Source of the DNA: Nostoc commune NIES-4072
GTDB lineage: Bacteria; Cyanobacteriota; Cyanobacteriia; Cyanobacteriales; Nostocaceae
Direction: 5' to 3'
Assembly (NCBI RefSeq): GCF_003113895.1
Contig: NZ_BDUD01000001.1
Location: forward strand, 4,800,456 to 4,864,455
Length of the DNA: 64,000 nucleotides
In this document: in pieces, positions 2,920 through 54,562 of the stretch
Layout: each line of letters begins with the position of its first letter
How positions within the stretch are numbered: the first letter of the stretch is position 1
Position numbers and translations under genes: made by a program
The notes under the pieces: generated by a model
What the model was told of the DNA's origin: nothing
Seen by the model: only the letters and a program-made list of their open reading frames with translations
Databases searched by the model: none

Positions 2920-3129
2920 AATAAGCAATTGCAGCTTTTGAATAAGCGATCGCAGCTTTTGAATAAGCGATCGCAGCTTTTGAATAAGCGATCGCAGCTT
3001 TTGAATAAGCAATTGCAGCTTTTGAATAAGCGATCGCAGCTTTTGAATAAGCAATCGCAGCTTTTGAATAAGCAATCGCAGCTTTTGAATAAGCAATCGC
3101 AGCTTTTGAATAAGCAATTGCAGCTTTTG
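2920..3129 (+). repeat. Tandem array A: 10 x 21 bp
   Basis: Ten consecutive units have the form AATAAGCRATYGC followed by AGCTTTTG. Four copies carry GCGATCGC (HIP1), three GCAATTGC and three GCAATCGC, so copies differ only by G/A and C/T transitions. Because 21 is a multiple of three, the array has no stops in one + frame, where it encodes the heptad NKxxQLL, and in two - frames. The + frame runs unbroken into the lipoprotein gene downstream. A related half-unit sits just upstream at 2881-2896. The 3' flank is a dispersed Nostoc-type repeat (GCTACGCGAACGGG...). Confidence 0.95.
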
Positions 3130-3294
3130 AGAAAGCTACGCGAACGGGCATCCTACGGCGAACGTCTCCCCTTCTGCCAAGGCTATCCATCAGCCGGATC
3201 TTTCTCAACGTGGAAAGCAAAGGAATTTCTTGATGCTGAAAAAGCAGCAGTCTGTCCGGTTAAACTGATAAGGATAAAAATAGCAGATCGGGCA

Positions 3295-3711
3295 GTGAAT
3301 AACATAGTGCGGTTAGTTTTAACAGCAATATTGCTGGTGCTAGTGACAGCTTGTGGCAGTATTGGACTGCTACCGACTAGCGAGTTAGTGCAAAAAGCGA
3401 TCGCACTTGGGCTAGAGCAAACTCAACAAAAACTTAGCCAGCAGTTGGATCTAGATTTTCAAGGATTTGAAATCAAGCGCCTAGCAATTACCCAGGAAGA
3501 ACCTCTAACGATTGAAAATTTACCAGCTTTCCACGTTCGGGGAACCTACGACTTAATTGTAAAGCTACCAAAACGGCGCTTAACGCAACCAAAAAAACCT
3601 TTTGATGTTTACCTGCAAATTCAGCAAGAAGGTAAAACTTGGCGATCGCTAATTCCAGAAAAAGGTAGTAAAGATACGCAATCAATTTGGCGTAGCTATC
3701 TCATCCAATAG
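3295..3711 (+). CDS. Putative lipoprotein
   Basis: A GTG at 3295 starts a 138-aa protein with a classical lipoprotein signal: a hydrophobic stretch (VLTAILLVLVTAC) and the lipobox VTAC followed by Gly-Ser. The mature part looks soluble, about 115 aa, with alternating charged strands and the tail SKDTQSIWRSYLIQ. An in-frame reading through array A would add about 125 residues in front of the signal peptide, which would stop export, so the GTG (or the GTG at 3307) is preferred. A decayed copy of the C-terminus is found near 5.95 kb. The family is unknown. Confidence 0.65.
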   Translation: MNNIVRLVLTAILLVLVTACGSIGLLPTSELVQKAIALGLEQTQQKLSQQLDLDFQGFEIKRLAITQEEPLTIENLPAFHVRGTYDLIVKLPKRRLTQPKKPFDVYLQIQQEGKTWRSLIPEKGSKDTQSIWRSYLIQ

Positions 3712-3729
3712 AGACGGGGAACAGTAAAG

Positions 3730-3981
3730 ATGCAACCTTTGTCTATTGTCTGCTGCCTAAAAAAGTGCGATCGCAACTCGCACACGATTAAATACGAGGT
3801 GAAATTGGAGCCAACACCAGAACAATTACGAAGCTTTTACCGGATGTCGGTGAGGATGAGCAATTTACTTCGGCCAATTAACTTAGTGCGGATGGACGAA
3901 AGGACAAAGCGTATAGTTATGCTGGTCGGAGACACAATAGAAATAGAAATTTATCCTAACGGGGAGGTCGTTACCAAATGA
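3730..3981 (+). CDS. Small protein, first gene of an overlapping pair (DUF6888-like)
   Basis: The product is 83 aa or less. The conserved-looking core is LEPTPEQLRSFYRMSVRMSN, followed by LLRPINLVRMDERTKRIVML and IEIEIYPNGEV. The first 23 residues contain a HIP1 site and look unlike protein, so translation may instead start at the GTG at 3799 or the TTG at 3805, just after GAGGTG. Its stop overlaps the next ATG (ATGA), which implies translational coupling. From memory, the pair resembles the cyanobacterial DUF6888/DUF6887 small-gene pairs. This assignment is tentative and no biochemical function is known to me. Confidence 0.6.
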   Translation: MQPLSIVCCLKKCDRNSHTIKYEVKLEPTPEQLRSFYRMSVRMSNLLRPINLVRMDERTKRIVMLVGDTIEIEIYPNGEVVTK

Positions 3982-4169
3982 TACAGCCCAATTTTGCGGA
4001 TATGTCTGATACCGAGTTACGAGCTTACGTGTTGCAAAATCCTAACAACACTGAAGCGTTTCACGCATACGTTGATCGCTTGCACGCAGCGAATCCAAAT
4101 CCACAACTAATGTCAATTGAAGAAGCCGAGGCTGAATTAGAGAGGATGGTTAACCAAGGTCAAAAATAG
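3978..4169 (+). CDS. Small protein, second gene of an overlapping pair (DUF6887-like)
   Basis: The product is 63 aa and acidic. It has the pattern MSDTELRAYVLQNPNNTEAF, then a Tyr/His helix and a C-terminal helix EEAEAELERMVNQ. It overlaps the upstream gene by 4 bp. It resembles the small DUF6887 family, which is common in multicopy two-gene cassettes in Nostoc. A toxin-antitoxin-like role is conceivable from the gene arrangement only. A strong hairpin follows directly. Confidence 0.65.
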   Translation: MIQPNFADMSDTELRAYVLQNPNNTEAFHAYVDRLHAANPNPQLMSIEEAEAELERMVNQGQK

Positions 4170-4176
4170 CAGCAAA

Positions 4177-4206
4177 GGGAGGAAAGAAGATTTTTCTTTC
4201 CTCTCT
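4177..4206 (+). terminator. Rho-independent terminator-like hairpin
   Basis: GGGAGGAAAGAA pairs with TTCTTTCCTCTC across a short A/T loop, 8 bp after the stop of the small gene pair. The T tract lies in the loop rather than after the stem, so it is not a canonical terminator. Confidence 0.5.
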
Positions 4207-4223
4207 CTGCAATTCATCCATAA

Positions 4224-4406
4224 CTACCAGCCACGAGCCTTAATAGCTTGGCAGTAATACTTCAGTGCTGTGCTACCAGGATTATCCTCACGATCAAGAA
4301 TTTCCCGATCTTCCTTTTCCTCGGTTATTTTCTTGCCGCTATTAATGTTGTAGACTCTGTGTCCAACTGCCCGTATCTTGGCATCAGAACACGAAGGACG
4401 AAGCAT
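4224..4406 (-). CDS. Doubtful small ORF in a 600-bp gap
   Basis: This 60-aa reading (MLRPSCSDAKIRAVGHRVYN...) is charged and protein-like, with an AGGAAGG sequence ahead of it, but I recognise no family. It may be the tail of a lost gene. The remaining gap, 4407-4768, is AT-rich and shows no gene. Confidence 0.25.
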   Translation of the reverse strand: MLRPSCSDAKIRAVGHRVYNINSGKKITEEKEDREILDREDNPGSTALKYYCQAIKARGW

Positions 4407-4768
4407 ATACTCATAAATACGTTTTCCTTCCTAAGATTTTACAAGTTGTTTTTGCCGGATGGCAAAAAACTGACCCAATAAAATACTGTATGGTTTGTGT
4501 GGAAGTAATTTTGACTGTAGTATATGTCTGGACTGGAGTTTGACGTTTTGCCTCATAATCAAGCATGGTCTTATGTTGGGCTATTTCGCTTCCTCAACGG
4601 TGCGACTTTGACTCTAAGAATTCACTTAAAAAACCTCCTTTGTTAAAGCAATAAATTTTACTATAAAAACACAAAATGCGCGTATTCACTGATGAAAACG
4701 GCAAATTTGCATAGTTAATATGTAGCAAATAATATAGCATCGGCTAGTGGATCAAGTTTAGAAGTTAA

Positions 4769-5017
4769 ATGACTATCAAAAAACCCTTGGCTATCAACCA
4801 GCCAGAGGTGGGGCAGATCATTCATGATTTGCAGCTTGCCTTCGGGTTTACGCAAGAACAGTTTGCACCAACTCTCGGTGTGACATATACCACGATTAAC
4901 CGTTGGGAAAATGGACGCTCTAAACCCTCGCCTTTGGCGATGGAGAAGATTGAGGGGATGTTGGAAAAGATGGGCGATAAGGGTCAGGATTTATTGACTA
5001 AGTATTTGTCGAATTAG
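4769..5017 (+). CDS. XRE-family helix-turn-helix regulator
   Basis: The product is 82 aa. A single HTH_3 domain covers about residues 12-68: IIHDLQLAFGFTQEQFAPTL (helices 1-2), then the recognition helix around TYTTINRWENGRSKPSPLAM. The WENGRSKPSP string is typical of antitoxin-like or plant-type XRE regulators. No ligand domain is present. It has no partner gene of its own on either side and could be an orphan antitoxin. DNA binding is inferred from the family. Confidence 0.85.
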   Translation: MTIKKPLAINQPEVGQIIHDLQLAFGFTQEQFAPTLGVTYTTINRWENGRSKPSPLAMEKIEGMLEKMGDKGQDLLTKYLSN

Positions 5018-5082
5018 TTTCTAAATCAGTTTTGTCTGGGCAAGTAAAATAAGATTAAATTACCAAATTAGTGAAGGAAAAG

Positions 5083-5739
5083 ATGAAAATACAATCACTC
5101 TTTTTAAAGCTTTTACCAAGTCTCTTGATTCTCAATACATTAGCTTTATCATACTCACCAATATCAGCTAATACAACTCAGAATAAAGCTAAATTTCAAC
5201 CACTTTCTCAAAAACAAGCATTAACCATAAATACTATATCTGCTCAAATATTTATTCATGATATTAAGAATAATCCTATTAATAATGCACAAGTAATATT
5301 AATTGGTAAGAATAATACATATTTAGAAAGTTTGACAGATAATAATGGTATAGCTGAGTTTAATATTAAGTCCCAACAAAATTATACTCTTTTAGTTGCA
5401 CATCCAAATTTTGCAGGCATAATAGTTAGAAATTTTTCTCCAAAAAAGGATTCACAAAAAAAACTAGAACATAGAGGAAATGTTGGTTCTGTTATTTTTC
5501 CTGATAGCACTGGATACATTAAAGGTTTAAAAGGTCGTTTGAATCCCATTTTAGATACATTATATAGAACTTATATTTATGCTGATAATATAGCGGTGAA
5601 TGGTGGTCAACAACAACCAGTAAATTTTGAAATTGGCAAACCACTAAATCTTGAAGATGCTGAAGGTTCTACCATGCAAATTACTATTCGATTTGCACAA
5701 GGTAATACTTTCCTTATTGAATTTTTAAAACCATCTTAG
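5083..5739 (+). CDS. Secreted protein with carboxypeptidase-regulatory-like fold
   Basis: The product is 218 aa. The frame opens at a GTG at 5071, but AAGGAA at 5074-5079 fits the ATG at 5083, which begins a signal peptide (MKIQSLFLKLLPSLLILNTL, cleavage near ISA-NTT). Residues about 50-115 (AQIFIHDIKNNPINNAQVIL, then LTDNNGIAEFNI) have the look of a CarboxypepD_reg or SpaA-type beta-sandwich. The C-terminal half is unknown. The gene is noticeably more AT-rich than its neighbours, which suggests recent acquisition. Confidence 0.6.
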   Translation: MKIQSLFLKLLPSLLILNTLALSYSPISANTTQNKAKFQPLSQKQALTINTISAQIFIHDIKNNPINNAQVILIGKNNTYLESLTDNNGIAEFNIKSQQNYTLLVAHPNFAGIIVRNFSPKKDSQKKLEHRGNVGSVIFPDSTGYIKGLKGRLNPILDTLYRTYIYADNIAVNGGQQQPVNFEIGKPLNLEDAEGSTMQITIRFAQGNTFLIEFLKPS

Positions 5740-5930
5740 TGATTTATTTTAAAGTTAATCAATTGTATAGTTTGTAAAATAATTTTCATACATGGAATCA
5801 GCAACGCCCTTATTTTTTTGGCTAAGGTATTGCTAATACGAAGTATTTTTTATCTCACGCAGAGACGCAGAGGAGTGATCTAGTGCAAGTAGAAAAAGCA
5901 TCACAAGCATTTGTGTTAATATTTTTCGGA

Positions 5931-5989
5931 AAAAGGTGACAAAGATACTCAAATTACCTGGTTTAGCTATCTCATCCCCAAATTAGTTT
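5931..5989 (+). pseudogene. Relic of a lipoprotein C-terminus
   Basis: One frame reads EKGDKDTQITWFSYLIP, which matches EKGSKDTQSIWRSYLIQ at the end of the lipoprotein gene at 3295-3711. An in-frame stop lies just upstream and there is no start, so this is only the tail of a former paralogue. The rest of the gap 5740-6079 holds a short dispersed repeat (ACGCAGAGACGCAGAGG, about 5856) and nothing else. Confidence 0.6.
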
Positions 5990-6079
5990 GTGCAATTAAA
6001 AAAACTATCACAATAATTTACGTATAACTGCTGTGGCATAGTCATGATCGAGGTATAGTTTCACTGGAGACAGGGCAAA

Positions 6080-6853
6080 ATGTATATCAACTTTTTCATC
6101 AGTTCCATTGCTGGAATTGTGGTTGTGGTATTAACAGCTTTTGGCTTACTGCAATGGTTGCATATCCCTGCTGGTAACTTTCTTGATTGGGTAATTGGTG
6201 GTGCAAGCTTTTGGTGGTTGTTGGTAATTGTTACCGTCCCGTGGAATGTGCATTTTCAAGCTAAAGAAGTTTTAGCAGAAGCAGCACAATCTAAAGAGAA
6301 AAAAATTCCAGTCGATGAGAAACAAGTGAAGTATGTCACAGTGTTGGCAAAGCGATCGCTCTGGGTTGCCATTGCTTTACACTTATTCTCAGCCGTTGGT
6401 CTTTATGCTCTTGCTGCCACTGGTATTAGTACAGTTGGATATATAAGTTCTGGTGCAGCTTTGTTATTAACAATTCTCCGTCCAGCGATTCGGGCGTATG
6501 AGTATTTATATGCGCGGTTAGCGATGATTCGCCAAGAATGGAAGTATCCCCGCGAAGATATTGTTGAACTGCGCGATCGCTTCTCTATATTGGAACAAAA
6601 AATCCAGTCATTCGAGGAGCAACTCAACCCAGAACAATCTTATTCATTACCCGCAACTCAACAACGCTTTGCCGAAGAAACTCGTAAAGATTTAGCCAGA
6701 ATTGCGGCTAACTTGGAAGAATTACGGGCGACAAATCAAACTGAACATGAGCGTTTGGCCAGAGAAGGAAGAAATGCGATCGCGCAACTTTCCACCGACG
6801 GGCAATTTCTCGATCATGTCCGCGAAATTATTCGATTTTTTAAAACCGCCTAA
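6080..6853 (+). CDS. Membrane protein with C-terminal coiled coil
   Basis: The product is 257 aa. Hydrophobic segments lie at about 5-27 and 35-55, and a further pair at about 92-135 (LWVAIALHLFSAVGLYALAA and a following Gly/Leu-rich helix). From about residue 150 the protein is a charged, heptad-rich helix (LRDRFSILEQKIQSFEEQL and later LARIAANLEELRATN), probably a cytoplasmic coiled coil. No enzymatic motif is seen. It could be a scaffold or an envelope-associated protein. The family is not recognised. Confidence 0.7.
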   Translation: MYINFFISSIAGIVVVVLTAFGLLQWLHIPAGNFLDWVIGGASFWWLLVIVTVPWNVHFQAKEVLAEAAQSKEKKIPVDEKQVKYVTVLAKRSLWVAIALHLFSAVGLYALAATGISTVGYISSGAALLLTILRPAIRAYEYLYARLAMIRQEWKYPREDIVELRDRFSILEQKIQSFEEQLNPEQSYSLPATQQRFAEETRKDLARIAANLEELRATNQTEHERLAREGRNAIAQLSTDGQFLDHVREIIRFFKTA

Positions 6854-7019
6854 TTTTTATTTATCAAGAAGGGAAAAGGTAAAAACATTGCAAGTGGCGC
6901 GAAATAATCCGTATCATCGCAAGACAAGTCGAAACCCCACTCCTAGTGTTGGGCTTGGTTTAATTGCGAATTGCGTTAGCGGAGCGGGGCGTTAGCCCAT
7001 TGCGAATTGTGAATTGGTT

Positions 7020-7793
7020 TCATGTTCGCCGATTAACTAGAGTAGCGCTAGCTTGGTCAACAGGCATCAGCACAACTTCATTAATATTGACATGGGGCGA
7101 TCGCGTCACACAGAAAAATATCACATCAGCCACATCATCTGCTGTCAGAGATTTAACTCCTTGGTAGACTTTGTTGGCGCGTTCAGTATCTCCGTGAAAG
7201 CGCACATTGCTAAATTCTGTTTCTACCATACCAGGGTCAACGGAAGTTACACGTACCCGCGTTCCCAACAGGTCTTGTTTTAAACCTTCAGAAATCGCCG
7301 TCACAGCAGCTTTGGTAGCACAGTAGACATTACCACCGGGATAGGTTTGATGTCCAGCAATGGAACCTAAATTGACCACATGACCGCGATCACGGCTTAC
7401 CATTCCCGGAACGACATAGCGGGATACGTAAAGTAAACCCTTAACGTTAGTATCAATCATGTCTTCCCAGTCTTGAAAGCTGCCTTCGTGCAACTTGTCT
7501 AAACCACGACTTAGACCAGCATTGTTAATGAGAATGTCGATGTCAGACCAGGCAGAGGGTAGAGTAGAAATGGCTTCTTCTACAGCATTGCGATCGCGCA
7601 CATCTAGTTGTAATAAATGAATTTCAATACCAAATTCTTTAACGAGAGTATCTGCTAGCTGCTGCAAACGTTCCAGTCGTCGTGCCGCTAGGATTAGTTT
7701 TGCACCCGCACCAGCGAAGATCCTCGCGCAAGCAGTACCAATACCACTACTTGCACCAGTGATTAAAATGATTTGATTTTCTAGCGAAGTCAT
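7020..7793 (-). CDS. SDR-family NAD(P)-dependent oxidoreductase (YdfG-like)
   Basis: The product is 257 aa, the usual classical SDR length. It shows the cofactor motif TGASSGIG (about 13-20), NNAG (about 92-95), the catalytic Ser in LGSIAGHQTYPGG, YCATK (Tyr and Lys of the active site) and the PG motif in SVDPGMVETEF. The pattern SNVRFHGDTERANKVYQGV with a C-terminal VLMPVDQA matches the YdfG/serine 3-dehydrogenase-like group that reduces small hydroxyacids or semialdehydes. Substrate assignment is inference. The gene stands alone, with short dispersed repeats on its 3' side (about 6962-7020). Confidence 0.88.
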   Translation of the reverse strand: MTSLENQIILITGASSGIGTACARIFAGAGAKLILAARRLERLQQLADTLVKEFGIEIHLLQLDVRDRNAVEEAISTLPSAWSDIDILINNAGLSRGLDKLHEGSFQDWEDMIDTNVKGLLYVSRYVVPGMVSRDRGHVVNLGSIAGHQTYPGGNVYCATKAAVTAISEGLKQDLLGTRVRVTSVDPGMVETEFSNVRFHGDTERANKVYQGVKSLTADDVADVIFFCVTRSPHVNINEVVLMPVDQASATLVNRRT

Positions 7794-7872
7794 TAGGATA
7801 GTTAGGAGTGAGAAGTTAATAGTTATGAATTATGAAATAGTACAAGTTTCATAGTTCATAATTTATCATCAC

Positions 7873-7931
7873 AGACGCGATTAATCGCGTCTCTACTCCT
7901 AACTCTTGTACAGACGCGATTAATTGCGTCT
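7873..7931. repeat. Two palindromes between convergent and tandem genes
   Basis: AGACGCGATTAATCGCGTCT (7873-7892) is a perfect 20-bp palindrome. A second copy at 7912-7931 differs by one base and abuts the stop codon of the next - strand gene. The same core (GAGACGCGAT...) forms the centre of the MITE at 13.9 kb and its broken copy at 54.4 kb. The second copy may act as a terminator stem. Confidence 0.8.
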
Positions 7932-8771
7932 CTATTTCTTCACCACTCGCAGGCGCTGAGTTACCATCGTCATCCCATTACCGCGCAGGATGACAGCAGA
8001 AACCCACTGATTACCAGGGGTAGATGGTGCTTGTGCGGTTTTAAACAGTCCGCCAGATGTTAGTAATTCCAAATCCACGGATGTAGGTTTGAGAAATTTA
8101 TCTGCTTGTATGGGTTCCTCTAGCGCCGTTCCTAGTAGAAAATCATCACCAAGTGGCTCTTGGACGATCGCATCAAAACTATACTTCTGACCAACCACCA
8201 CCTGCTGTGGTAATTTAATATCAATTTGGGGCGGCTTGTTGCCAGAGGTAACTTGGGTGCGTTCTGACAAAATGTCTTGGCGGACTATTTTTCCGCCTGC
8301 AATGCGCTGACGCGATTTAATTGTGGCATTGAGAGTCGAATTATTATTGTTAGCGGAAGGTAAGCCAGTTATCTTCGTTTCAGTTTCCGCAATAATTCCA
8401 TTGCCTTCAGGTTTTGAAGATAGCAGTTTTGTACTGTATTGCAATTTGGGATATCGTTGCCAAAGTGAAGTCAAAGACTTTTGCAGGGTTTGCAGGTTTA
8501 ATCCATCCCCATGAGTGAAATTGGGGCTGTAGAATTGCAACACCCCTTTGACATCGCCTTGACTAGCGGCTGCATCAACTTGTGTCAACAGGTTTTTCAC
8601 ATCGGCTGGTGCATTTTGGGCTGTACCAGCTTGGACTAACTGTTGTGGTGTCGCCGCTTGAGTACGTTGCCAACCACTTGTTAAACCAAGGGTTAGCAGG
8701 AATGAAACTAGCCAGATACTAGCTGGAAATCTGAGTTGTCGTCTCAATAAGGCGGTAATAATGTTTGTCAT
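7932..8771 (-). CDS. Secreted protein with NTF2/SnoaL-like domain
   Basis: The product is 279 aa. A long signal peptide or membrane anchor (about 15-40, FPASIWLVSFLLTLGLTSG) is followed by a segment typical of NTF2-like folds: LLTQVDAAASQGDVKGVLQF and YSPNFTHGDGLNLQTLQKSL (about 62-105). A beta-rich C-terminal part ends in VSAVILRGNGMTMVTQRLRV. It is probably periplasmic. No catalytic residues are evident. It is divergent from murG with about 85 bp between, so the two may share a regulatory region. Confidence 0.65.
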   Translation of the reverse strand: MTNIITALLRRQLRFPASIWLVSFLLTLGLTSGWQRTQAATPQQLVQAGTAQNAPADVKNLLTQVDAAASQGDVKGVLQFYSPNFTHGDGLNLQTLQKSLTSLWQRYPKLQYSTKLLSSKPEGNGIIAETETKITGLPSANNNNSTLNATIKSRQRIAGGKIVRQDILSERTQVTSGNKPPQIDIKLPQQVVVGQKYSFDAIVQEPLGDDFLLGTALEEPIQADKFLKPTSVDLELLTSGGLFKTAQAPSTPGNQWVSAVILRGNGMTMVTQRLRVVKK

Positions 8772-8856
8772 TGGTTAAGAGTTTACTGATTTGATGAGAG
8801 AAAGTAAGGAAATTGTTTTATCTTAGTTAAGCTAGACGCTAAACGGTAGAGGTTTG

Positions 8857-13087: not shown

Positions 13088-13107
13088 TTCTGAAGTTTAA
13101 CTAAATT

Positions 13108-14106: not shown

Positions 14107-14901
14107 TCAATCTTCTGCCCGCAACAACCAAAAGCCGCTATAAGTCATCCCGGAATCATCGGGTTGAACTAACAAAAAATGCAATCCTCGGCTTTGCTTT
14201 TTTCGTTGTTCAAATGCTTGGGCTGCTGTTGTAACTTCTGGATCTTCAAAAGTGGCAACAATCCATCTGTCTACCAAGCCAGCTTCTAATATTAAGCCGT
14301 CTGGTGCGCCAGATATATAATTCAATCCTACGGGACGGGCTTGCTGCAACCACCGCGCTAGGCGCATCGATTGCCGTCCACCATAAATCACTACACCGGG
14401 GACGGGTACTGTTGATGCCAAACCCAAATTGATGGGTTTGCGATGTTCTGGGATGTGCAAAATGGGAATGGGGCGATCGCTAAATATCGTTTCCACATCA
14501 CTAGCAGCTAAACTCGCAAAACGCCATTGTTCTCCCCAAAGGTTTTCTGGTAATGGTGCTGGGGGTGGTTTATCCAGTGTTGAGGGATATTGCTTTTCTT
14601 GTAACCACTGCTTTAACGCCAAAGTATGGCGAGTAGGTTCAACATTTATACTTAAATTGCGTCCCGCCGCCTCAATTAAGCTTAGTGACTGAGGACGAAA
14701 TACCTGAATCACATCTGGCAATTTTTCACCTGCGGCTAACTCAAGTTGAGCAGCAACCCAACTCGAATTTGCTGCTGACTGGAGACAGCTAGCTTCATAC
14801 TGAAAGCTGCGAGTTGCGTCACAAATCAACAACTCCCATAAAATTTGTCCAGATGCATCTGGTAAGGGACGACGATAAAAATCAACTTGCCAAGTTTTCA
14901 T
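14107..14901 (-). CDS. Tab2/Atab2-family RNA-binding protein (DUF1092)
   Basis: The product is 264 aa. It opens with TWQVDFYRRPLPDASGQILW, the family hallmark, and has the C-terminal signature LHFLLVQPDDSGMTYSGFWL, close to the end of plant and cyanobacterial homologues. In plants and algae Tab2/Atab2 binds A/U-rich RNA and aids translation of photosystem core genes such as psaB. The cyanobacterial role is presumed similar. The frame stays open for 24 codons upstream through a 7-bp repeat, but homologues start at the ATG at 14901. It lies about 1 kb from psbA, on the other strand. Confidence 0.9.
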   Translation of the reverse strand: MKTWQVDFYRRPLPDASGQILWELLICDATRSFQYEASCLQSAANSSWVAAQLELAAGEKLPDVIQVFRPQSLSLIEAAGRNLSINVEPTRHTLALKQWLQEKQYPSTLDKPPPAPLPENLWGEQWRFASLAASDVETIFSDRPIPILHIPEHRKPINLGLASTVPVPGVVIYGGRQSMRLARWLQQARPVGLNYISGAPDGLILEAGLVDRWIVATFEDPEVTTAAQAFEQRKKQSRGLHFLLVQPDDSGMTYSGFWLLRAED

Positions 14902-14936
14902 AAGTGGGGAGTGGGGAGATGGGGGAGAGTTAAACC

Positions 14937-14975
14937 AATTCGCAATTCGCAATTCGCAATTCGCAATTCGCAATT
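14937..14975. repeat. Heptanucleotide repeat (AATTCGC)5
   Basis: Five perfect AATTCGC units followed by AATT form a short tandemly repeated repetitive (STRR) sequence as known from Nostocales. It lies just upstream of the Tab2 start. Confidence 0.9.
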
Positions 14976-15080
14976 ACGTTTTGTGACGGGGATTTAGACC
15001 CCGACACAAAACGTGCTGCCTATCTTGCTGGGGACTTAAACCCCCAAAGTTCGTTAAAACTGAAAGTTTCAAGCTCAGAG

Positions 15081-15408
15081 GCTCAACGTTCGAGTAAAAA
15101 GGTTCAACGTTTGAGTAAAAAGGTTCAACGTTCGAGTAAAAAGGCTCAACGTTCGAGTAAAAAGGCTCAACGTTCGAGTAAAAAGGCTCAACGTTCGAGT
15201 AAAAAGGTTCAACGTTTGAGTAAAAAGGTTCAACGTTCGAGTAAAAAGGTTCAACGTTCGAGTAAAAAGGTTCAACGTTCGAGTAAAAAGGCTCAACGTT
15301 CGAGTAAAAAGGTTCAACGTTCGAGTAAAAAGGTTCAACGTTTGAGTAAAAAGGCTCAACGTTTGAGTAAAAAGGCTCAACGTTCGAGTAAAAAGGCTCA
15401 ACGTTCAA
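15081..15408. repeat. Tandem array B: 16 x 21 bp
   Basis: The units are GYTCAACGTTYGAG followed by TAAAAAG, starting every 21 bp from 15081 to 15396; the last is partial. Only two positions vary, both C/T. The three-copy pattern C-C, T-T, T-C occurs at copies 1-3 and again at 6-8, which suggests block duplication. Two - frames and one + frame are free of stops throughout (heptapeptides such as NVEPFYS and KKVQRSS), but these readings look artificial. The sequence is unrelated to arrays A and C apart from the period. Confidence 0.95.
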
Positions 15409-47756: not shown

Positions 47757-48959
47757 ATGAAACTTTGTATTGTTACTCATAAAATCAAAAAAGGTGATGG
47801 TCAAGGGCGGGTAAATTACGAAGTAGCTCAAGAAGCAATTCGTCGTGGTCATGAATTGACATTATTGGCTAGTGAAGTCGCATCAGAACTAGAAGATAAT
47901 AGTCAAGTTAATTGGATTTCAATTCCAGTCAAAGGCTATCCGACAGAATTTGTGCGGAATTTCATATTTGCCCAAAAGAGTGCAGATTGGTTACGGCAAC
48001 ATCGCTCTAAGATTGATTTAGTTAAAGTCAATGGCGCAATTAACCTGGCTGCGGCTGATGTAAATGCTGTACATTTTGTCCACAGTTCATGGTTGCGATC
48101 GCCTGTTCATATTTCCCGCAACCGCCGAGATTTGTATGGTTTATATCAATGGCTATTTACGGCTTTTAATGCCCGTTGGGAAAAACAGGCTTTCCAAAAA
48201 GCGCAGGTTGTCGTAGCGGTATCGGAAAAGGTAGCGCAGGAATTAGTTAACATTGGTGTGCCGCGTTCTCGGATTCGTGTAATTGTCAATGGCGTTGATT
48301 TAGAAGAGTTTGCCCCTGGTGCAAGCGACCGCCAAAAATTAGGTTTACCGGAGAATGTCACCTTAGCATTGTTCGCCGGAGATATCCGCACACCTAGAAA
48401 GAACTTAGATACGGTGCTGCACGCCTTAGCGAAAGTTCCAGATTTACATTTAGTAGTGGTGGGACACACCCAAGGTAGTCCTTTCCCAGAATTAGCAGCA
48501 TCTTTAGGGTTAAGCGATCGCGTGCATTTTGTGGGATTTCGCCGTGATATCCCCCAAATTATGCAAGCAGTAGATTTATTTGTTTTTCCTTCCCGATACG
48601 AAGCTTGCAGCCTCGTATTGTTAGAAGCACTTTCTTCAGGATTGCCTGTAATTACTGCCACAGCTACCGGAGGCGGAGAGTTGGTGACACCAGAATGTGG
48701 CATCGTCTTATCCGACTCAGATGATATTGATGCTTTGGCTGTGGCGTTGATGTCCTTGGTGAGCGATCGCGCCCTCATACAGCAAATGGGCAAAGCAGCT
48801 CGCTCTGTGGCAGAAAAACATAGCTGGACTACTATGGCACAAACTTATGTGGATCTATTCGAGGAGTTAAGCAATAATGCGGAACACCGTTCTGATACCG
48901 ACTTATCGCCGTCCACAAGACCTATCACGCTGCCTTTTGGCGCTACAGGAGCAAACTAA
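47757..48959 (+). CDS. GT4-type glycosyltransferase
   Basis: The product is 400 aa. It opens LCIVTHKIKKGDGQGRVNYE and has FVHSSWLRSP, SRIRVIVNGVDLEEFAPG, LFAGDIRTPRKNLDTVLHAL, LVVVGHTQGSPFPEL and the donor loop FVFPSRYEACSLVLLEALSS. The expected fold ends near residue 373 (YVDLFEELSN). The last 27 residues (NAEHRSDTDLSPSTRPITLP and on) overlap the next gene in another frame and look unrelated to the family, so the original stop may have been lost. Confidence 0.9.
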   Translation: MKLCIVTHKIKKGDGQGRVNYEVAQEAIRRGHELTLLASEVASELEDNSQVNWISIPVKGYPTEFVRNFIFAQKSADWLRQHRSKIDLVKVNGAINLAAADVNAVHFVHSSWLRSPVHISRNRRDLYGLYQWLFTAFNARWEKQAFQKAQVVVAVSEKVAQELVNIGVPRSRIRVIVNGVDLEEFAPGASDRQKLGLPENVTLALFAGDIRTPRKNLDTVLHALAKVPDLHLVVVGHTQGSPFPELAASLGLSDRVHFVGFRRDIPQIMQAVDLFVFPSRYEACSLVLLEALSSGLPVITATATGGGELVTPECGIVLSDSDDIDALAVALMSLVSDRALIQQMGKAARSVAEKHSWTTMAQTYVDLFEELSNNAEHRSDTDLSPSTRPITLPFGATGAN

Positions 48960-49803
48960 ACCCGTTGATCAGGTGATAGTAGTTGTCCGTGACACGGATG
49001 CAGAAACTTGGGAATTCTTGGCGCAATTAAACGCGCCCAATTTGCCATTGCATACTGTGAAAGTCACACAACCGGGAGTAGTAGCTGCCCTCAACGCCGG
49101 ACTAGCAGCAGTGGAGGGTGATATCGTTTCCATTACTGATGATGATGCTGCACCTCACCCAGATTGGTTAGAGCGCATCGCCGCTTACTTTACCTGTGAT
49201 AGCCATCTCGGCGGACTGGGAGGGCGTGATTGGATATACCACGGCAGCAAATTAGAAGACGAATCCCGCCCAGTAGTGGGACAGTTGCAGTGGTTTGGCC
49301 GAGTGATTGGCAACCATCACCTGGGAGTAGGAGAACCCCGCGAAGTCGATATTCTCAAGGGCGTAAACATGAGTTTTCGTACCCAAGCAATTGGACAACT
49401 GCGCTTTGACGAGCGGATGCGCGGTACTGGAGCGCAGGTACATTTTGAAATGGCATTCACTCTGACATTAAAACGGGCTGGTTGGAAGATAATTTACGAT
49501 CCTAATGTTGCTGTAGATCACTATCCGGCACAACGTTTTGATGAAGATCAGCGAAATAATTTTAACGAAATTGCCTTTATTAATTTAGTCCATAATGAAA
49601 CCTTAGTTTTATTAGAGCATTTGCCATTTATCCGCCGAATTATATTTTTATTATGGGCAGTATTTGTGGGTACATGCGATAGCTTGGGTTTCGTCCAATG
49701 GCTGAGATTTTTACCTAGCCAAGGGCAGTTGGCAGGGAAAAAATTACTGGCATCTTGGCGGGGACGTTGGCAAGGATATAAACAATTTGTCATTGGTCAT
49801 TAG
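48877..49803 (+). CDS. GT2-family glycosyltransferase
   Basis: The product is 308 aa. GAGGAG at 48861-48866 places the start at the ATG at 48877. That start is required, since the first motif (NTVLIPTYRRPQDLSRCLLA) follows at once. It overlaps the preceding gene by 83 bp. VSITDDDAAPHPDWLERIAA gives the metal site, and VDILKGVNMSFRTQAIGQLR with RGTGAQVHFEMAFTLTLKRA the acceptor region. A C-terminal helix (FIRRIIFLLWAVFVGTCDSL) may lie in the membrane. The last codons are part of a heptanucleotide repeat. Confidence 0.92.
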   Translation: MRNTVLIPTYRRPQDLSRCLLALQEQTKPVDQVIVVVRDTDAETWEFLAQLNAPNLPLHTVKVTQPGVVAALNAGLAAVEGDIVSITDDDAAPHPDWLERIAAYFTCDSHLGGLGGRDWIYHGSKLEDESRPVVGQLQWFGRVIGNHHLGVGEPREVDILKGVNMSFRTQAIGQLRFDERMRGTGAQVHFEMAFTLTLKRAGWKIIYDPNVAVDHYPAQRFDEDQRNNFNEIAFINLVHNETLVLLEHLPFIRRIIFLLWAVFVGTCDSLGFVQWLRFLPSQGQLAGKKLLASWRGRWQGYKQFVIGH

Positions 49804-49823
49804 TCATTTGTCATTGGTCATTG
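49789..49823 (+). repeat. Heptanucleotide repeat GTCATTN x 5
   Basis: Five units (GTCATTG, GTCATTA, GTCATTT, GTCATTG, GTCATTG) cross the stop codon of the GT2 gene, encoding its final VIGH. The repeat can thus alter the C-terminus if units are gained or lost. Confidence 0.85.
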
Positions 49824-49879
49824 CAGACTGATTATTCCATTTGGGATTTTTTATGTGTAAATCTAAAATCTAAAATTGA

Positions 49880-51313
49880 ATGAATTCTAGACAGATACTT
49901 TTCAATAGTTTTTTACAAGAAAGCTATTCTCCCGAAGAGCGATCGCAACAGGGTTGGATGGCGATCGCAGGCTTTATATTACTAACTGTAGTTTGCTATT
50001 TTGCTGGTGCGACTGCTGCATTGCGCCTAATTTATCCGGTGATGGCTTTAGTAGTAGCCATATTTTTATACTTGCGGCATCCCATTCTCTACATCAGCTT
50101 TACTTGGTGGATCTGGTTTCTCACGCCCTTAGCTACCCGCTTGGTTGACTATCGCGTGGGCTGGGACGCTACCCGTCAGATGCTTATAGCACCATACTTG
50201 GTAGTATTTGTAACTATTGCAACATTCTTGCGACACTTTCCCCGCGCCTCACGTCAAGGGGGCTTGCCGTTTGTTTTGGCTTTTATCGGAGTCTTCTATG
50301 GCTTTCTAATCGGTCTGATTTATAACCCACCAATCCCTGTAGCACGTGGGCTGATGGATTGGCTTAGTCCGATTATTTTCGCTTTTCACTTATTTATCAA
50401 CTGGCGAGATTATCCCAGCTATCGCCAGAATATTCAGCGAACATTTCTCTGGTCTGTGTTAATTTTAGGAGCTTATGGCGTATATCAATTTGTGGTAGCT
50501 CCTGAGTGGGATAGGTACTGGCTCATCCAATCAAAACTATTCATGAGTTCTGGAAACCCTGTACCTTTCGGAATGCGCGTCTGGAGTACATTGCACTCAG
50601 TCGGCCCCTTTGGTTCCGTCATGCAAGCTGGGTTGCTCTTGTTATTTACTAGTTCAGGAAACTTAATTTTTCCTGCTTCAGTTGTTGGTTACTTGTCCTT
50701 CCTGTTGACACAAGCACGTACTAATTGGGGAGGCTGGTTATTAGGAATAATTATGATCGTGGGTTCAGTCAAAACCCGCATTCAAATGCGCTTAATCATC
50801 ATAATTGTGGTGATGGCAATTTGTGTTGTGCCATTGACAACCATTGAACCAATTGCTGGTGTTGTAGCAGCCCGTTTGGAAACATTTTCTAACCTTGAAG
50901 AAGATAACAGTTTTAAAGATAGATCGGGAAGTTACGATAAAAACCTTGGTTTAGCCCTTTCTAATGGTCTAGGTAATGGCTTAGGAAATATTTGGAAAGT
51001 TAACGAAAAAACTGGACAAATCGAAGTAGTGGTTATTGATAGTGGCATTTTAGATATGTTTTTTACCCTTGGTTGGTTTGGAGCCATCTTTTATATGGGT
51101 GGATTAATTTTTTTAATTATCAGTGTCAGCAGTTATGGTGAAGGTCGTTTTGATAGTTTTATTAGTGCTGCCCGCGCTATTGGTATCAGTTCTTCCACAC
51201 AGCTAATTATCGGTAGCGGCATGTTAAGTGTGGCAGGGATGATTCTTTGGGGATTTTTAGCTATGGCTATGGCAGGACACAAGTATTATCAACATCAAAA
51301 GAATTATGAATAA
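49880..51313 (+). CDS. O-antigen ligase/polymerase-like membrane protein (Wzy/WaaL family)
   Basis: The product is 477 aa with about ten or eleven membrane helices, from MAIAGFILLTVVCYFAGATA (about 27-46) to LIIGSGMLSVAGMILWGFLA near the end. A large periplasmic loop (about 300-385) contains LETFSNLEEDNSFKDRSGSY, with the Arg-rich site typical of Wzy/WaaL proteins. In the pathway it should polymerise or ligate repeat units after HepA moves them. It is placed between two glycosyltransferase genes. Confidence 0.9.
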   Translation: MNSRQILFNSFLQESYSPEERSQQGWMAIAGFILLTVVCYFAGATAALRLIYPVMALVVAIFLYLRHPILYISFTWWIWFLTPLATRLVDYRVGWDATRQMLIAPYLVVFVTIATFLRHFPRASRQGGLPFVLAFIGVFYGFLIGLIYNPPIPVARGLMDWLSPIIFAFHLFINWRDYPSYRQNIQRTFLWSVLILGAYGVYQFVVAPEWDRYWLIQSKLFMSSGNPVPFGMRVWSTLHSVGPFGSVMQAGLLLLFTSSGNLIFPASVVGYLSFLLTQARTNWGGWLLGIIMIVGSVKTRIQMRLIIIIVVMAICVVPLTTIEPIAGVVAARLETFSNLEEDNSFKDRSGSYDKNLGLALSNGLGNGLGNIWKVNEKTGQIEVVVIDSGILDMFFTLGWFGAIFYMGGLIFLIISVSSYGEGRFDSFISAARAIGISSSTQLIIGSGMLSVAGMILWGFLAMAMAGHKYYQHQKNYE

Positions 51314-51398
51314 ACACGAAAATATTTGACTGGATGCAAATTATTTTTTGTAGTTAGTTAAAAACAAAATCTTACAACTTAAATAGGGCTAATATATT

Positions 51399-52511
51399 AT
51401 GAAAGCAATTATTGTAATGCCACTGGCCGAGCAACGAGGTGGCGGTGAAATGATGCTTTGGGATTTGGTACAGCAAGGGCGTAATGCTGGTGTTGAGTGG
51501 CTGGTGATATTTTTAGAAGACGGCCCGATGGTTGAGCAAGTAAAGTCCCTTGGTATTGATGCGCGAGTTGTGGAAAGTGGACGTTTACGCCAAATCTACC
51601 GTTTTATTGCTGCCGTTTTTCGGATAGCTGCGATCGCCCGCCGCGAACGTGCAGATATAATTGTCAATTGGATGTGGATTACGCATATATCTGGAGGTTT
51701 GGCGGCGATGCTGGCGGGCTTACCTGCTGTATGGTATCAGCTAGAAGTGCCTAGCGATAAAACTTGGTTGGTACGAATCGCTACTTTAATCCCAGCGCGT
51801 GCAATTATCACCCTCTCCCAAGATGGCAAGCAAGCACAGGCAGAGATTTGGCCCCACAGACCAACACCTTTAGTTTATCCTGGTGTTGCATTAGACCGAT
51901 TTGAGCCTAATGCTTTGCCGTCTCCAGAAGAAGCACGGCGAAAACTAGGCTTACCTTTACACGGGCCGTTAATTGGAATTGTTGGGCGATTGCAACGATG
52001 GAAGGGAATGCACGTATTGGTGCAAGCGATGCCAAAAATTTTACAGAAGTATCCTGATGCTCATTGTGTAGTGGTTGGCGGTAAGCACGATTTAGAACCA
52101 GATTATGAGGATTTTTTAAAAGCTGAAATCGCCTCCTTGGGCTTGAAAGAGCAAGTAATTATGGCTGGTTTACAGCGTAATATTCCAGAGTGGGTGCAGG
52201 CGATGGATGTATTCGTTCATGCCTCGGATAAAGAACCCTTTGGAATTGTGATTATTGAAGCGATGGCGCTGGGTAAACCTGTGATTGCTGGTGATGCAGG
52301 CGGCCCGACAGAGATTATTACCGATGGCATGAATGGATTATTAACACCTTACGGTGATGCAGAGAAGTTAGCGATCGCAATTCTCCGCTATCTTGACGAG
52401 CAAGAGTTTGCCCAAAGTGCCGGAGTAGCCGCCAGGCAACGCGCTCTCGATTTCTCAACGCAGAATTATGCTCAAAACTTTATTAGTGTACTTCGTTCTG
52501 CTAAAGCTTGA
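51399..52511 (+). CDS. GT4-type glycosyltransferase
   Basis: The product is 370 aa. It has KAIIVMPLAEQRGGGEMMLW, IVNWMWITHISGGLAAML, LVYPGVALDRFEPNALPSPE, IGIVGRLQRWKGMHVLVQAM, HCVVVGGKHDLEPDYEDFL and VFVHASDKEPFGIVIIEAMA followed by GDAGGPTEIITDGMNG. All donor-binding parts are complete. It is the last gene of the island on this strand. After it the gene content changes to decayed genes on the other strand. Confidence 0.94.
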   Translation: MKAIIVMPLAEQRGGGEMMLWDLVQQGRNAGVEWLVIFLEDGPMVEQVKSLGIDARVVESGRLRQIYRFIAAVFRIAAIARRERADIIVNWMWITHISGGLAAMLAGLPAVWYQLEVPSDKTWLVRIATLIPARAIITLSQDGKQAQAEIWPHRPTPLVYPGVALDRFEPNALPSPEEARRKLGLPLHGPLIGIVGRLQRWKGMHVLVQAMPKILQKYPDAHCVVVGGKHDLEPDYEDFLKAEIASLGLKEQVIMAGLQRNIPEWVQAMDVFVHASDKEPFGIVIIEAMALGKPVIAGDAGGPTEIITDGMNGLLTPYGDAEKLAIAILRYLDEQEFAQSAGVAARQRALDFSTQNYAQNFISVLRSAKA

Positions 52512-52629
52512 TCCTCCCTCACTCTCCTTAAAAAGGAGAGAATTTAAAACCTCGTTTTCAGCCTCTGGATAGATGATTCTTAAACAGTGCAGCAATGTTT
52601 TGTTAGCCCTCATAGAACTAAACGTACCT

Positions 52630-53264
52630 CTAATTCACTCTAGTTGCCATACGCTCTCCTCCACCCCGATCTAGTCCACCTTGATGTAGTATTACACCTG
52701 ATGCCTTGCCTGTCTCATCTACTAAGAATGTGCGTTGAGCGTTCACCTGACGTAAACTCTAGTGGTTCACCACTAAACCGGGCAATCAAATTATCTAAGG
52801 TTACTTTGATTTTCGTTATCTGCTCGAAGTTATCAAGTTCATTAAAGTTAGGAATCCCTGAAGTGTGATTGAGGAGTTGATGGATGCTAATTTGCTCGCC
52901 GTTAGGGTAGTCGGGCAAATAAGTTGAAATCTTTTGATGCACCGATAGCAAACCTTGCTCCTGAAGTTGCAGAATTGCTGTCGCGGTGAACTGCTTGGTA
53001 ATGGAACCGATGCGAAACTTTGTCTTTTGTGTATTGGGAACATCATGTTCCAGGTTAGCCATGCCGTAGCCTGCACTCAACAGTATTTCACCTGCACGGG
53101 CAACCAATACCGATCCCATGAAGTAGCGATTTGCCAGACATGCTTGAAGATAAGCTGTCATCTTTTGCCCCGCGTCTAGCAAACTCAACAGCTGTGATCC
53201 GTCCGATACCACTGGAGGCTCCAACGACGGAAACGACTTGTTGATTGATTGGCTTTAATTTCAT
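52630..53264 (-). pseudogene. Chimeric pseudogene: SDR start joined to an internally deleted serine hydrolase
   Basis: From the ATG at 53264, preceded by TAAGGAG, the first 34 codons read KPINQQVVSVVGASSGIGR and VEFARRGAK, the head of a short-chain dehydrogenase. Near 53170 this runs, out of frame, into a class C beta-lactamase-like hydrolase (YLQACLANRYFMGSVLVARA, SITK with catalytic Ser/Lys, LLNHTSGIPN). After EPLEFTSGERS the middle (with the Tyr motif) is missing, and a third frame gives the native tail FLVDETGKASGVILHQGG ending at 52630. So two deletions and two frame changes are visible. Confidence 0.85.
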
Positions 53265-53326
53265 AAGTGATACTCCTTAAAAAAAATGGGGATTCGGGAT
53301 TAAAACAATTGTTTCCCAGCCCCTAA

Positions 53327-53465
53327 TCAAAGGTGATAAGCAAGAAACTGGTTCAATGCGTCAGTAAATAATTCAGGACGCTCGACTTGGGGTAAGTGCC
53401 CACAATTGGGTATCAAAGCTAAGTGACTGCATCTTGCGCTTGGTAATTCGGCAAAACTAGGTCAT
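53327..53465 (-). pseudogene. C-terminal remnant of an alpha/beta hydrolase
   Basis: One frame ends LALIPNCGHLPQVERPELFT followed by DALNQFLAYHL and a stop. This is the usual tail with the catalytic His (CGHLPQVERP) of alpha/beta-hydrolase enzymes. In-frame stops precede it and there is no body of the gene. Confidence 0.8.
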
Positions 53466-53720
53466 TTTGCCGCTTTTCAAACCCCATGTTCACAGTTACT
53501 CCTTTCGATTATTTCGATAGACTCGTGCATCGTTTTTTGATAACATCTTGGATGAGAAAAATGAAAGTTCAAGCCTTAGAAAAATATGGCAGTGCTTTTA
53601 CCCAAATAAGGGTTTTTCAGAAACTAAAAGCACTACCATATATTTTGCTGAGGCTCATATTATATCTGAAATTATTCAATGTCATCAAAAAACAAGAATA
53701 TCCTGCTTCAATTAATCCGA

Positions 53721-53897
53721 TTAAAACCGAATAAGCCCATAATAAGCACTTACAGCAGCTAGGATAATTGTTATAACTCCCAAAGTTGTGCTAAGTAGAA
53801 ATTGCACAGAGGTTTTTTTATTGAGAGCTTCTTTACTTCCACCTTCAAGTATCGTGCGTTCGGTGTTGTTAGAATTGGTTACGTTGTCAGTTGTCAT
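53721..53897 (-). CDS. Small single-pass membrane protein (58 aa)
   Basis: ATG at 53897. A polar, Asn/Thr-rich N-terminus (TTDNVTNSNNTERTILEGG) is followed by a hydrophobic helix (VQFLLSTTLGVITIILAAVS, about 31-50) and the end AYYGLIRF. It has protein-like composition and stands near a truncated Hlip gene, but I know no family. Small thylakoid proteins often look like this; that is only a guess. Confidence 0.5.
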   Translation of the reverse strand: MTTDNVTNSNNTERTILEGGSKEALNKKTSVQFLLSTTLGVITIILAAVSAYYGLIRF

Positions 53898-54138
53898 GGT
53901 TCTTATCTTGTTTGATTATTTATTACAATTTCGCCTTTAGTCCTAAAAATTACATCTAGCTTTAGGATTAACAAAAAAGGTAGAAATAAGTAGATGTAAT
54001 TAAATCTGACTTTCATTCCCTTGATTACAAATCGGCAGATCAAGCTTCTTGTGAACTCTTTCTAGAAACTGTTGTTGTTCGGGCTACTAAGTTTTTCTTT
54101 ATTGATTTCCCCAAGGAGGGATAAATATAAGCGAAGAT

Positions 54139-54315
54139 TTAGCGAACCAAGTGGAGTACATCACGTACTAAACTATAGCCAGCCAAATCCCAAAGTACGT
54201 AAGAAACAAAGCCAATCATCGCTAAACGCCCATTCCACAACTCTTGTTGGGGATTCCACCCAATAATCCAAGCATTGCGATCGACACCGTTATAGGCTTT
54301 AACTTCAGTAGATAA
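54139..54315 (-). pseudogene. High-light-inducible protein (Hlip), N-terminally truncated
   Basis: The frame carries STEVKAYNGVDRNAWIIGWN, then PQQELWNGRLAMIGFVSYVL and WDLAGYSLVRDVLHLVR, which are the chlorophyll-binding ExxNGRxAMIGF signature and the normal C-terminus of Hlip/Scp proteins. It is stopped by TAA directly upstream, with no ATG, GTG or TTG at a usable place, so the N-terminus is missing. The broken MITE copy lies 40 bp upstream, so element insertion may have caused the loss. Confidence 0.8.
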
Positions 54316-54353
54316 TTAGACTTGTCGCTTTATAAAAAATTCCTGTCCTATGG

Positions 54354-54414
54354 CAATACAATTCAGACAAGACCAAAACACTTGTAGAGACGGCGATTTA
54401 TCGCGTCTCGAAAA
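54354..54414 (-). mobile_element. Truncated second copy of the 100-bp MITE
   Basis: It starts with the terminal CAATACAATTCAG and agrees with the reverse complement of the 13.9 kb element over about 61 bp with two or three mismatches, through the palindromic core to GTCTCGAAAAC. There the match stops and array C begins, so the second terminal repeat is gone. Confidence 0.85.
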
Positions 54415-54415
54415 C

Positions 54416-54562
54416 CTCGTTATGCCATTGCATCGACTCGTTATGCCATTGCATCGACCCGTTATGCCATTGCATCGACTCGTTATGCCATTGCATCGAC
54501 CCGTTATGCCATTGCATCGACTCGTTATGCCATTGCATCGACTCGTTATGCCATTGCATTGA
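54416..54562. repeat. Tandem array C: 7 x 21 bp
   Basis: The units are CYCGTTATGCC followed by ATTGCATCGA, seven in a row, with CTC or CCC at the start and one T in the last copy: again only C/T transitions. One side abuts the truncated MITE, the other a cut-off CrtO-like gene, whose open frame runs into the array as SMQWHNE heptapeptides. It has no sequence similarity to arrays A or B except the 21-bp period. Confidence 0.95.

What the first reader, a model, noticed from the sequence alone, without database searches (positions are those of the whole stretch)
2920..54562. Three unrelated tandem arrays that share an exact 21-bp period
Arrays at 2920-3129 (10 copies), 15081-15408 (16 copies) and 54416-54562 (7 copies) have different unit sequences but the same 21-bp unit. 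Classical Nostoc repeats are 7 bp (STRR) or 37 bp (LTRR). 21 is three turns of a 7-bp module or two turns of B-DNA, and keeps one phase of both the helix and the reading frame. All three lie between genes. This points to one mechanism producing arrays of fixed length from arbitrary local sequence.
Basis: seen in the sequence. Interest (0 to 1): 0.8.

Follow-up and report, generated by a model that had tools for sequence, protein, structure and literature searches.

The report
Noncoding repeats locked at 21 bases
The three arrays are real and belong to a set of noncoding tandem repeats scattered through genomes of Nostoc and some relatives, in which the repeat unit changes its letters over evolution but very rarely its length of 21 bases.

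Summary
Confirmed: three arrays of 10.1, 15.6 and 7.0 copies, all with period 21. "Arbitrary local sequence" is not supported: units fall into dispersed families. The array-2 family matches 34 of 35 same-genus genomes and the array-3 family 12 of 56 family genera. Clusters without detectable similarity still share the period. At one conserved spacer 15 of 20 genomes carry arrays with diverged units; there and at the array-2 site 284 of 296 core-to-core distances are 21, with one true exception inside an array. Reading frame, RNA fold, palindromes, A/T phasing and a 3x7 origin found no general support. One family sits inside a miniature transposon in all four copies examined. Best reading: a dispersed bacterial minisatellite system, homogenised in place, its unit length constrained, possibly because 21 bp is two helical turns. 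The constraint has simulation support; its cause is speculation, and a neutral minisatellite with inherited period is a strong rival.

The parts
2918..3130 (.). Array 1, 10.1 copies of TGAATAAGCAATCGCAGCTTT (21 bp)
   Evidence: TRF; relatives at the same spacer
2880..2917 (.). Left edge of array 1: a partial unit (AAGCGATCGCAGCTTTGAA) and the start of a second 21-bp-type module (GTGCGGAAAACACCAAAATGAAT, to 2922) that recurs in 42/63-bp arrays
   Evidence: Read; recurrences at C1:44667-44817, 89295 and 4225067-4225322; L093 unit
15079..15406 (.). Array 2, 15.6 copies of AGGCTCAACGTTCGAGTAAAA (21 bp), Y/F1 family
   Evidence: TRF; family; orthologous spacer
15060..15078 (.). Edge of array 2 (CTGAGCTTGAAACTTTCAG on the other strand), retained at the same spacer in relatives with arrays of this family
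   Evidence: Read
14936..14975 (.). 7-bp STRR (CAATTCG) x5.7 in the same spacer, a separate kind of repeat
   Evidence: TRF
14107..14973 (-). Tab2/Atab2-like RNA-binding protein ORF, neighbour of array 2
   Evidence: ORF, Pfam
54416..54563 (.). Array 3, 7.0 copies of CTCGTTATGCCATTGCATCGA (21 bp), E family
   Evidence: TRF; family
54387..54409 (.). Hairpin GAGACGGCGATTTATCGCGTCTC next to array 3; similar hairpins occur in inserts at other spacers
   Evidence: Read
54590..54847 (-). Truncated 5' part of a gene with FAD/NAD(P)-binding domains; about 480 further residues are present in relatives L274, L275 and L281

Best explanation
The arrays are noncoding minisatellites of a dispersed system found in Nostoc and some other Nostocaceae. 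(1) Shown: a limited set of 21-bp unit families recurs, about 20 noncoding arrays per Mb of this genome. (2) Shown for the E family by comparing four copies: the array is carried inside a miniature inverted-repeat element (MITE); how the other families spread is not known. (3) Inferred from conserved edges, 42/63-bp higher-order repeats and orthologous spacers: in place, an array is enlarged, shrunk and homogenised by unequal exchange or slippage in whole units, so the unit sequence turns over. (4) Inferred: unit length is constrained, because sequence change accumulates with almost no change of length and because units without detectable similarity share the length. (5) Speculative: the constraint is helical phase. 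At 10.5 bp per turn 21 is the smallest whole number of bases that makes a whole number of turns, so every copy faces the same side of the helix, as would suit cooperative binding or wrapping by a protein that tolerates sequence change, as with iterons.
For: Sharp peak at 21 in the own genome by two methods. Families by unit comparison. Same-genus and family-wide occurrence. At two conserved spacers 13 of 28 and 15 of 20 genomes carry arrays whose units differ while the period is 21. 284 of 296 core-to-core distances at these spacers are 21; 185 of 188 steps in 22 own-genome arrays. A neutral simulation with the intergenic indel:substitution ratio (216:1516) keeps modal period 21 in only 29-34% of runs at comparable divergence. 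Four of four strong copies of one MITE carry the E array.
Against: No binding protein and no function was found. A/T steps show no 10.5-bp harmonic. TRF indel scarcity is not special to 21 bp: 7-bp arrays have 0.072 indel columns per mismatch against 0.054, and with mild gap penalties 0.184 against 0.127. In the simulation a low ratio of 0.02 keeps period 21 in 79-85% of runs. True length exceptions exist (a 17-bp unit in L031, a 22-bp unit in L309). Families may share an ancestor too distant to detect, which would make the shared period mere inheritance. 15 of 28 and 5 of 20 genomes lack an array at the two spacers, so no array is indispensable.
Confidence: 0.42

Rival explanations
1. Neutral or selfish minisatellites with an inherited period. 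One or a few ancestral 21-bp repeats spread; arrays gain and lose whole units only, and units with an indel fall out of register and are purged by the exchange process itself. No function and no helical reason.
For: Presence, copy number and unit sequence vary freely between strains; edges conserved and interiors homogenised; 7-bp arrays show similar indel scarcity; carriage by a MITE gives a spreading mechanism.
Against: A simple neutral simulation with the local indel ratio loses the period in about two thirds of runs, though it has no register-dependent exchange; clusters without detectable similarity share 21.
Confidence: 0.38
2. The arrays act as RNA: transcribed spacers with one hairpin or protein site per 21 nt that tune operon mRNA.
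For: 21 of 42 arrays lie between co-directional ORFs against 6 convergent and 2 divergent; one conserved site is a spacer between genes with NIR_SIR and MFS_1 domains.
Against: Folding of 21 family units is on average no better than shuffled ones (mean z -0.39 and -0.11; single units reach about -2 to -3) and dyads are not enriched (p = 0.76). No background rate of co-directional pairs was computed. No transcript data were available.
Confidence: 0.06
3. Templated synthesis: a reverse transcriptase copies a 21-nt RNA template repeatedly, telomerase-like, and the product is integrated.
For: DRT10 reverse transcriptases make tandem-repeat cDNA of fixed unit length, 9 nt in one system (PMC12632851, passages), so such a machine exists in bacteria.
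Against: No candidate enzyme or template RNA was sought; orthologous arrays look evolved in place with conserved edges; E arrays move as part of a MITE.
Confidence: 0.04
4. The unit is a trimer of the 7-bp STRRs of the same genomes.
For: 7 bp is the commonest period (196 of 430 rows); lag-7 self-identity exceeds shuffles (0.300 against 0.238); A/T steps have a 7-bp harmonic in a set dominated by one superfamily.
Against: Lags 6 and 8 are raised equally (0.310 and 0.303); STRRs are not significantly nearer to arrays than to random spacer blocks (8 of 33 against 75 of 487, p = 0.22).
Confidence: 0.05
5. Translated heptapeptide repeats: 21 bp kept because it is seven codons.
For: In window arrays 1 and 2 the variable sites (two in each) fall in one codon position, and both variants are synonymous in one reverse frame.
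Against: No frame is open in all arrays at either conserved spacer; the best frame has stops in 4 of 15 and 1 of 12 arrays. Frame keeping would also allow 18 and 24. The other arrays do not repeat the codon pattern.
Confidence: 0.03

Closest known systems
BrickBuilt, a 23-nt minisatellite inside a MITE of Porphyromonas gingivalis (PMC4596501; abstract, section 5 and passages seen)
   Same: Imperfect tandem units near two helical turns, dispersed and intergenic, with leader and tail bearing inverted ends; copy number varies (1 to 22.8 there). The E family has this architecture in four of four copies examined.
   Different: One family with one unit sequence and 0-6% indels there; here several unrelated unit families with one strict period, at about 20 arrays per Mb, and no MITE frame found for the Y family or for window array 3.
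Short tandemly repeated repetitive sequences (STRR, 7 bp) of cyanobacteria (PMC2670836 and PMC4692102, passages)
   Same: Intergenic tandem repeats of fixed period and varied sequence in the same genomes.
   Different: 7 bp against 21 bp; no specific 7-bp substructure.
Long tandemly repeated repetitive sequences (LTRR, 37 bp; name and length from the finding and recall, not read)
   Same: Cyanobacterial tandem repeat.
   Different: 37 is not 21; none of the arrays with >=3.5 copies has period 37.
Small dispersed repeats (SDR, 21-27 nt) of Nostoc punctiforme (recalled; only a citation seen in PMC3116915)
   Same: Similar element size, same clade, small mobile repeats.
   Different: SDRs are single dispersed elements with a predicted fold, as recalled; these are tandem arrays without a fold signal. 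SDR sequences were not compared.
Tandem repeats of archaeal Borgs (PMC9879509, passages)
   Same: Fast-evolving tandem repeats in spacers and genes.
   Different: Borg units vary in length, are mostly perfect, and only 14-38% of the intergenic unit lengths are divisible by three.
Plasmid iterons (recalled)
   Same: Direct, non-palindromic repeats of about two helical turns.
   Different: Iterons bind a Rep protein at an origin; these are scattered over a chromosome, their sequence drifts, and binding was not tested.

Membership tests
BrickBuilt-type MITE-borne minisatellite | Tandem direct repeats of 20-odd nt without spacers, dispersed and multi-copy | tested here: met
   (21 nt instead of 23)
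BrickBuilt-type MITE-borne minisatellite | Leader and tail with inverted ends around the repeats | tested here: inconclusive
   Met for the E family in four of four strong copies. Not seen for window array 3 or for the Y family. So it holds for part of the system only.
BrickBuilt-type MITE-borne minisatellite | Promoter activity in segments | not testable with these tools
   No expression data
STRR | 7-bp unit | tested here: not met
   TRF assigns 21; lag 7 no higher than lags 6 and 8
LTRR | 37-bp unit | tested here: not met
   Period 21
SDR | Predicted hairpin fold with compensatory changes (recalled) | tested here: not met
   No fold excess in 21 units against shuffles; compensatory changes were not counted and SDR sequences were not compared
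Protein-coding tandem repeat | Open reading frame kept across orthologous arrays | tested here: not met
Iteron array | Bound by a replication initiator at an origin | not tested
   No binding data; arrays are scattered over the chromosome
DRT10-type templated repeat | RT with ncRNA template matching the unit | not tested
   No RT or ncRNA search was made

The most novel reading that the evidence does not exclude
What is conserved is the period and not the sequence: several unrelated satellite families of Nostocaceae are held at exactly two helical turns by selection, so that the arrays are chromosomal elements read through spacing, by a protein or by DNA topology, rather than through their letters.
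Probability: 0.28. Interest if true: 0.85.

Novelty: new variant of a known kind. Interest (0 to 1): 0.58.

Why it matters
Dispersed bacterial minisatellites are known. Here one strict period is shared by units without detectable similarity and survives deep turnover of the unit sequence at orthologous spacers, which separates constraint on spacing from constraint on letters. That makes the old question whether such arrays do anything directly testable: a 20- or 22-bp version of the same array is a clean control. Copy number and unit sequence also differ between strains, so the arrays could serve as strain markers, and they sit next to ordinary genes whose expression they might affect.

Tried and rejected
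Reading frame, RNA hairpins and palindromic operators, 10.5-bp A/T phasing, trimer of an STRR, insertion next to STRRs, Rfam families in the window (none at gathering scores), plasmids (arrays 2 and 3) and phages (array 2 only): no match. A hope that indel scarcity in TRF rows would be special to 21 bp failed: 7-bp arrays are similar. The 7- and 3.5-bp A/T harmonics come from a set dominated by one superfamily and were not resolved family by family. I first noted 14 arrays and 'all steps 21' in my notebook; the recount is 13 of 28, and one true exception (L309).

Rows dropped before counts: L074, fetched because of a known hit, was left out (histograms), but is. The first 400 kb of contig 1 was taken after one search had shown three array-1-like matches near 44.7 kb and one at 89.3 kb. 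Arrays in protein genes were dropped by hand (seven: L083 two, L088 two, L057, L055, L044); drop similar but not identical sets. L053 was kept although one search places it in a long ORF. At the Tab2 site 30 of 51 matching genomes gave loci and 28 of those had the YciI-like ORF in place; at the second site 30 of 53 gave loci and 20 had the left gene in place. Loci (L333-L362) were fetched and not analysed; one search gave no loci.
Full report
OBSERVATION. TRF finds the three arrays at the stated places, all with period 21 and no indels. Their units are unlike each other (12, 12 and 10 of 21 at best; shuffled pairs reach 12 or more in 7-8% of trials). The window lies at C1:4800456-4864455 of an 8.2-Mb genome in 11 contigs.

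PERIOD DISTRIBUTION. I read 80 stretches of this genome (the window and 79 stretches of 20 kb; 1.637 Mb without N). Of 54 arrays with period >=10 and >=3.5 copies 25 have period 21 (3 of them in protein genes), 4 period 42, 4 period 63, one each 18 and 24, none 19, 20, 22 or 23. Without a copy threshold (430 rows) there are 47 at 21, 3 at 20, 0 at 22, 9 at 18, 10 at 24 and 196 at 7. A lag scan without TRF gives 38 segments at 21, 5 at 18, 1 at 20, 2 at 24 and none at 19, 22 and 23. In 20 stretches of eight other same-genus genomes (0.40 Mb) 4 of 12 such arrays are 21 bp; in 80 named loci around one gene (1.39 Mb) 7 of 22; in 20 genomes of other families of the order (0.32 Mb) 0 of 5. The last sample is small: about 5 would be expected at the own-genome density and about 3 at the same-genus density.

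UNITS ARE FAMILIES. Over 67 arrays from all sources, unit consensi cluster at >=15 of 21 as 41, 7, 5, 3, 3, 2, 2 and four singletons; many of the 41 come from two orthologous spacers, and at this threshold about two chance links are expected over all pairs. In the own genome alone array 2 groups with four other arrays and array 3 with four others. Array 1 is in a cluster of three (at >=14 of 21) with L093 from N. mirabile, at the same spacer, and L024. Array 2 has matches (E <= 0.001) in 34 of 35 same-genus genomes, own included, and in 0 of 24 genomes of other families. Within the family it has matches (E <= 1e-8) in 58 of 192 genomes, 11 of 56 genera, and array 3 in 44 of 192, 12 of 56.

SITES IN RELATIVES. 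Array 1: in seven of 80 loci both flanks align. L094 has a 1-bp gap where the window has 410 bp, L096 and L103 have 22 bp, L102, L095 and L127 hold other inserts, L093 a 63-bp-period array made of three 21-mers. Array 2: of 28 genomes with both neighbours in place 13 carry a 21-bp array (3.6-15.6 copies); four more (L246, L254, L262, L270) keep what reads as one or two units; the remaining 11 have none or other inserts. A second spacer, between genes with NIR_SIR and MFS_1 domains (nirA and nrtP is my reading), has arrays in 15 of 20 genomes (7.9-15.2 copies); of the other five, two keep two units, one keeps one, two have none. Units at that spacer range from GAGCCTTTGAACTCGGAGGTT to AAGTCTTAAAGGTCGAAGGTT while the outermost units stay similar by eye. 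This is the pattern of arrays homogenised from within by whole-unit exchange. Array 3: relatives L274, L275 and L281 keep a gene with 482-483 stop-free residues beyond position 54590, where the window's gene breaks off; none of 29 relatives' loci (L274-L302) shows a 21-bp array, but several of these are paralogues or partial matches and not clean empty sites.

LENGTH LOCK. Core-to-core distances under 64 bp at both spacers number 296, of which 284 are 21. By reading, the other 12 are: a 20/22 pair in L265 from a shift of my pattern, 14+8 in L309, a true 22-bp unit at an array edge, one skipped copy (42) in L324, and seven outside arrays. Where TRF reports indels (L271, L253, L318, L311), the units printed still measure 21 within the array. 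A second walk over 22 own-genome arrays gives 185 of 188 steps of 21, one 17 (L031) and two 20s at the last step of an array (two arrays are in both counts). Of 75 TRF rows with period 19-23, 74 have 21 and one 19. Intergenic DNA around the window has 216 indel events per 1516 substitutions. A neutral simulation with this ratio, whole-unit exchange and 120 mutations (median consensus divergence 8, adjacent identity 0.81-0.95) keeps modal period 21 in 29-34% of runs; with ratios of 0.05 and 0.02 in 57-68% and 79-85%. It treats indel-bearing units as equally exchangeable, which the neutral rival denies. Against uniqueness: by TRF 7-bp arrays have 0.072 indel columns per mismatch and 21-bp arrays 0.054; with mild gap penalties 0.184 and 0.127.

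WHAT IT IS NOT. No frame is open in all arrays at either spacer (best frame: stops in 4 of 15 and 1 of 12). In arrays 1 and 2 the two variable sites fall in one codon position and are synonymous in one reverse frame, which I take as chance because other arrays do not show it. RNA folding of 21 family units averages z -0.39 and -0.11, with a few single units at -2 to -3; dyads are not enriched. A/T steps have no 10.5-bp harmonic (p = 0.84) but an excess at 7 and 3.5 bp in a set dominated by one superfamily. Lag-7 self-identity is above shuffles but equal to lags 6 and 8. STRRs lie within 75 bp of 8 of 33 arrays and of 75 of 487 random blocks (p = 0.22). No Rfam family reaches its gathering score in the window.

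SPREAD. E arrays at L037 and L040 lie in one element of about 300 bp with imperfect inverted ends (TTAGTACAGC and GCTGTACTTAA). Of nine own-genome matches to its left end four are strong, and all four carry the array, with 6.6-9.5 copies; the five weak matches were not read. This is the architecture of BrickBuilt (PMC4596501; abstract, section 5 and passages). D-family copies also share flanks by eye. I saw no such frame for the Y family.

MECHANISM. Shown: dispersed families, near-invariant unit length, sequence turnover at fixed sites, carriage of one family by a MITE. Inferred: whole-unit exchange and constraint on length. Speculative: helical phase, since 21 is the smallest integer period that returns each copy to the same face of B-DNA at 10.5 bp per turn. 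The neutral rival is nearly as likely on this evidence. Odds were lowered slightly after the recount (best reading from 0.45 to 0.42, neutral rival from 0.35 to 0.38, interest from 0.60 to 0.58, most novel reading from 0.30 to 0.28) because of the true exceptions and the 7-bp control.

LITERATURE. Ten searches of the CC-licensed PMC library, nine on repeats and one on templated repeat synthesis, listed no paper whose title or shown abstract describes 21-bp arrays in Nostocaceae; passages or sections were read in nine papers. Subscription papers are mostly not held, and the original STRR, LTRR and SDR papers were not read. [quoted passage not shown]

SCALE. 33 noncoding arrays (periods 21, 42, 63, 84; score >=100) in 1.644 Mb extrapolate to about 165 in the genome; 26 of 33 have 6.8-15.6 units.

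Noticed in passing
window 54318-54847: A gene with FAD/NAD(P)-binding domains is cut off after about 85 residues; array 3 and a hairpin fill the place where relatives have the rest of the gene.
   Followed up: partly
window 14976-15014: Hairpin element ACGTTTTGTGACGGGGATTTAGACCCCGACACAAAACGT beside array 2; its core has 7 copies in the sampled 80 stretches, and a copy cut short abuts the 21-bp array in L082.
   Followed up: partly
L037:6650-6960, L040:7660-7900, L363, L364: MITE of about 300 bp with an internal 21-bp minisatellite.
   Followed up: yes
L243-L272, spacer between the YciI-like ORF and Tab2: Insertion hot spot: different strains carry 21-bp arrays of two kinds, other small inserts or, in L259, what reads as an IS1-type transposase gene.
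   Followed up: partly
L082:14101-15629: A 21-bp array lies 50 bp from a gene with OrfB_IS605 and Cas12f1-like TNB domains; the relatives fetched were not examined.
   Followed up: no
L018:15702-16029, L021:1108-1299: 72-81-bp periodic arrays with GTTTCAATCCCTAATAGGGATTTT, which look like CRISPR arrays.
   Followed up: no
L019:17508-17740, L034:5040-5262, L055:7390-7662, L093:2419-2625: 63-bp arrays made of three 21-mers, one of which resembles by eye the module beside window array 1.
   Followed up: partly
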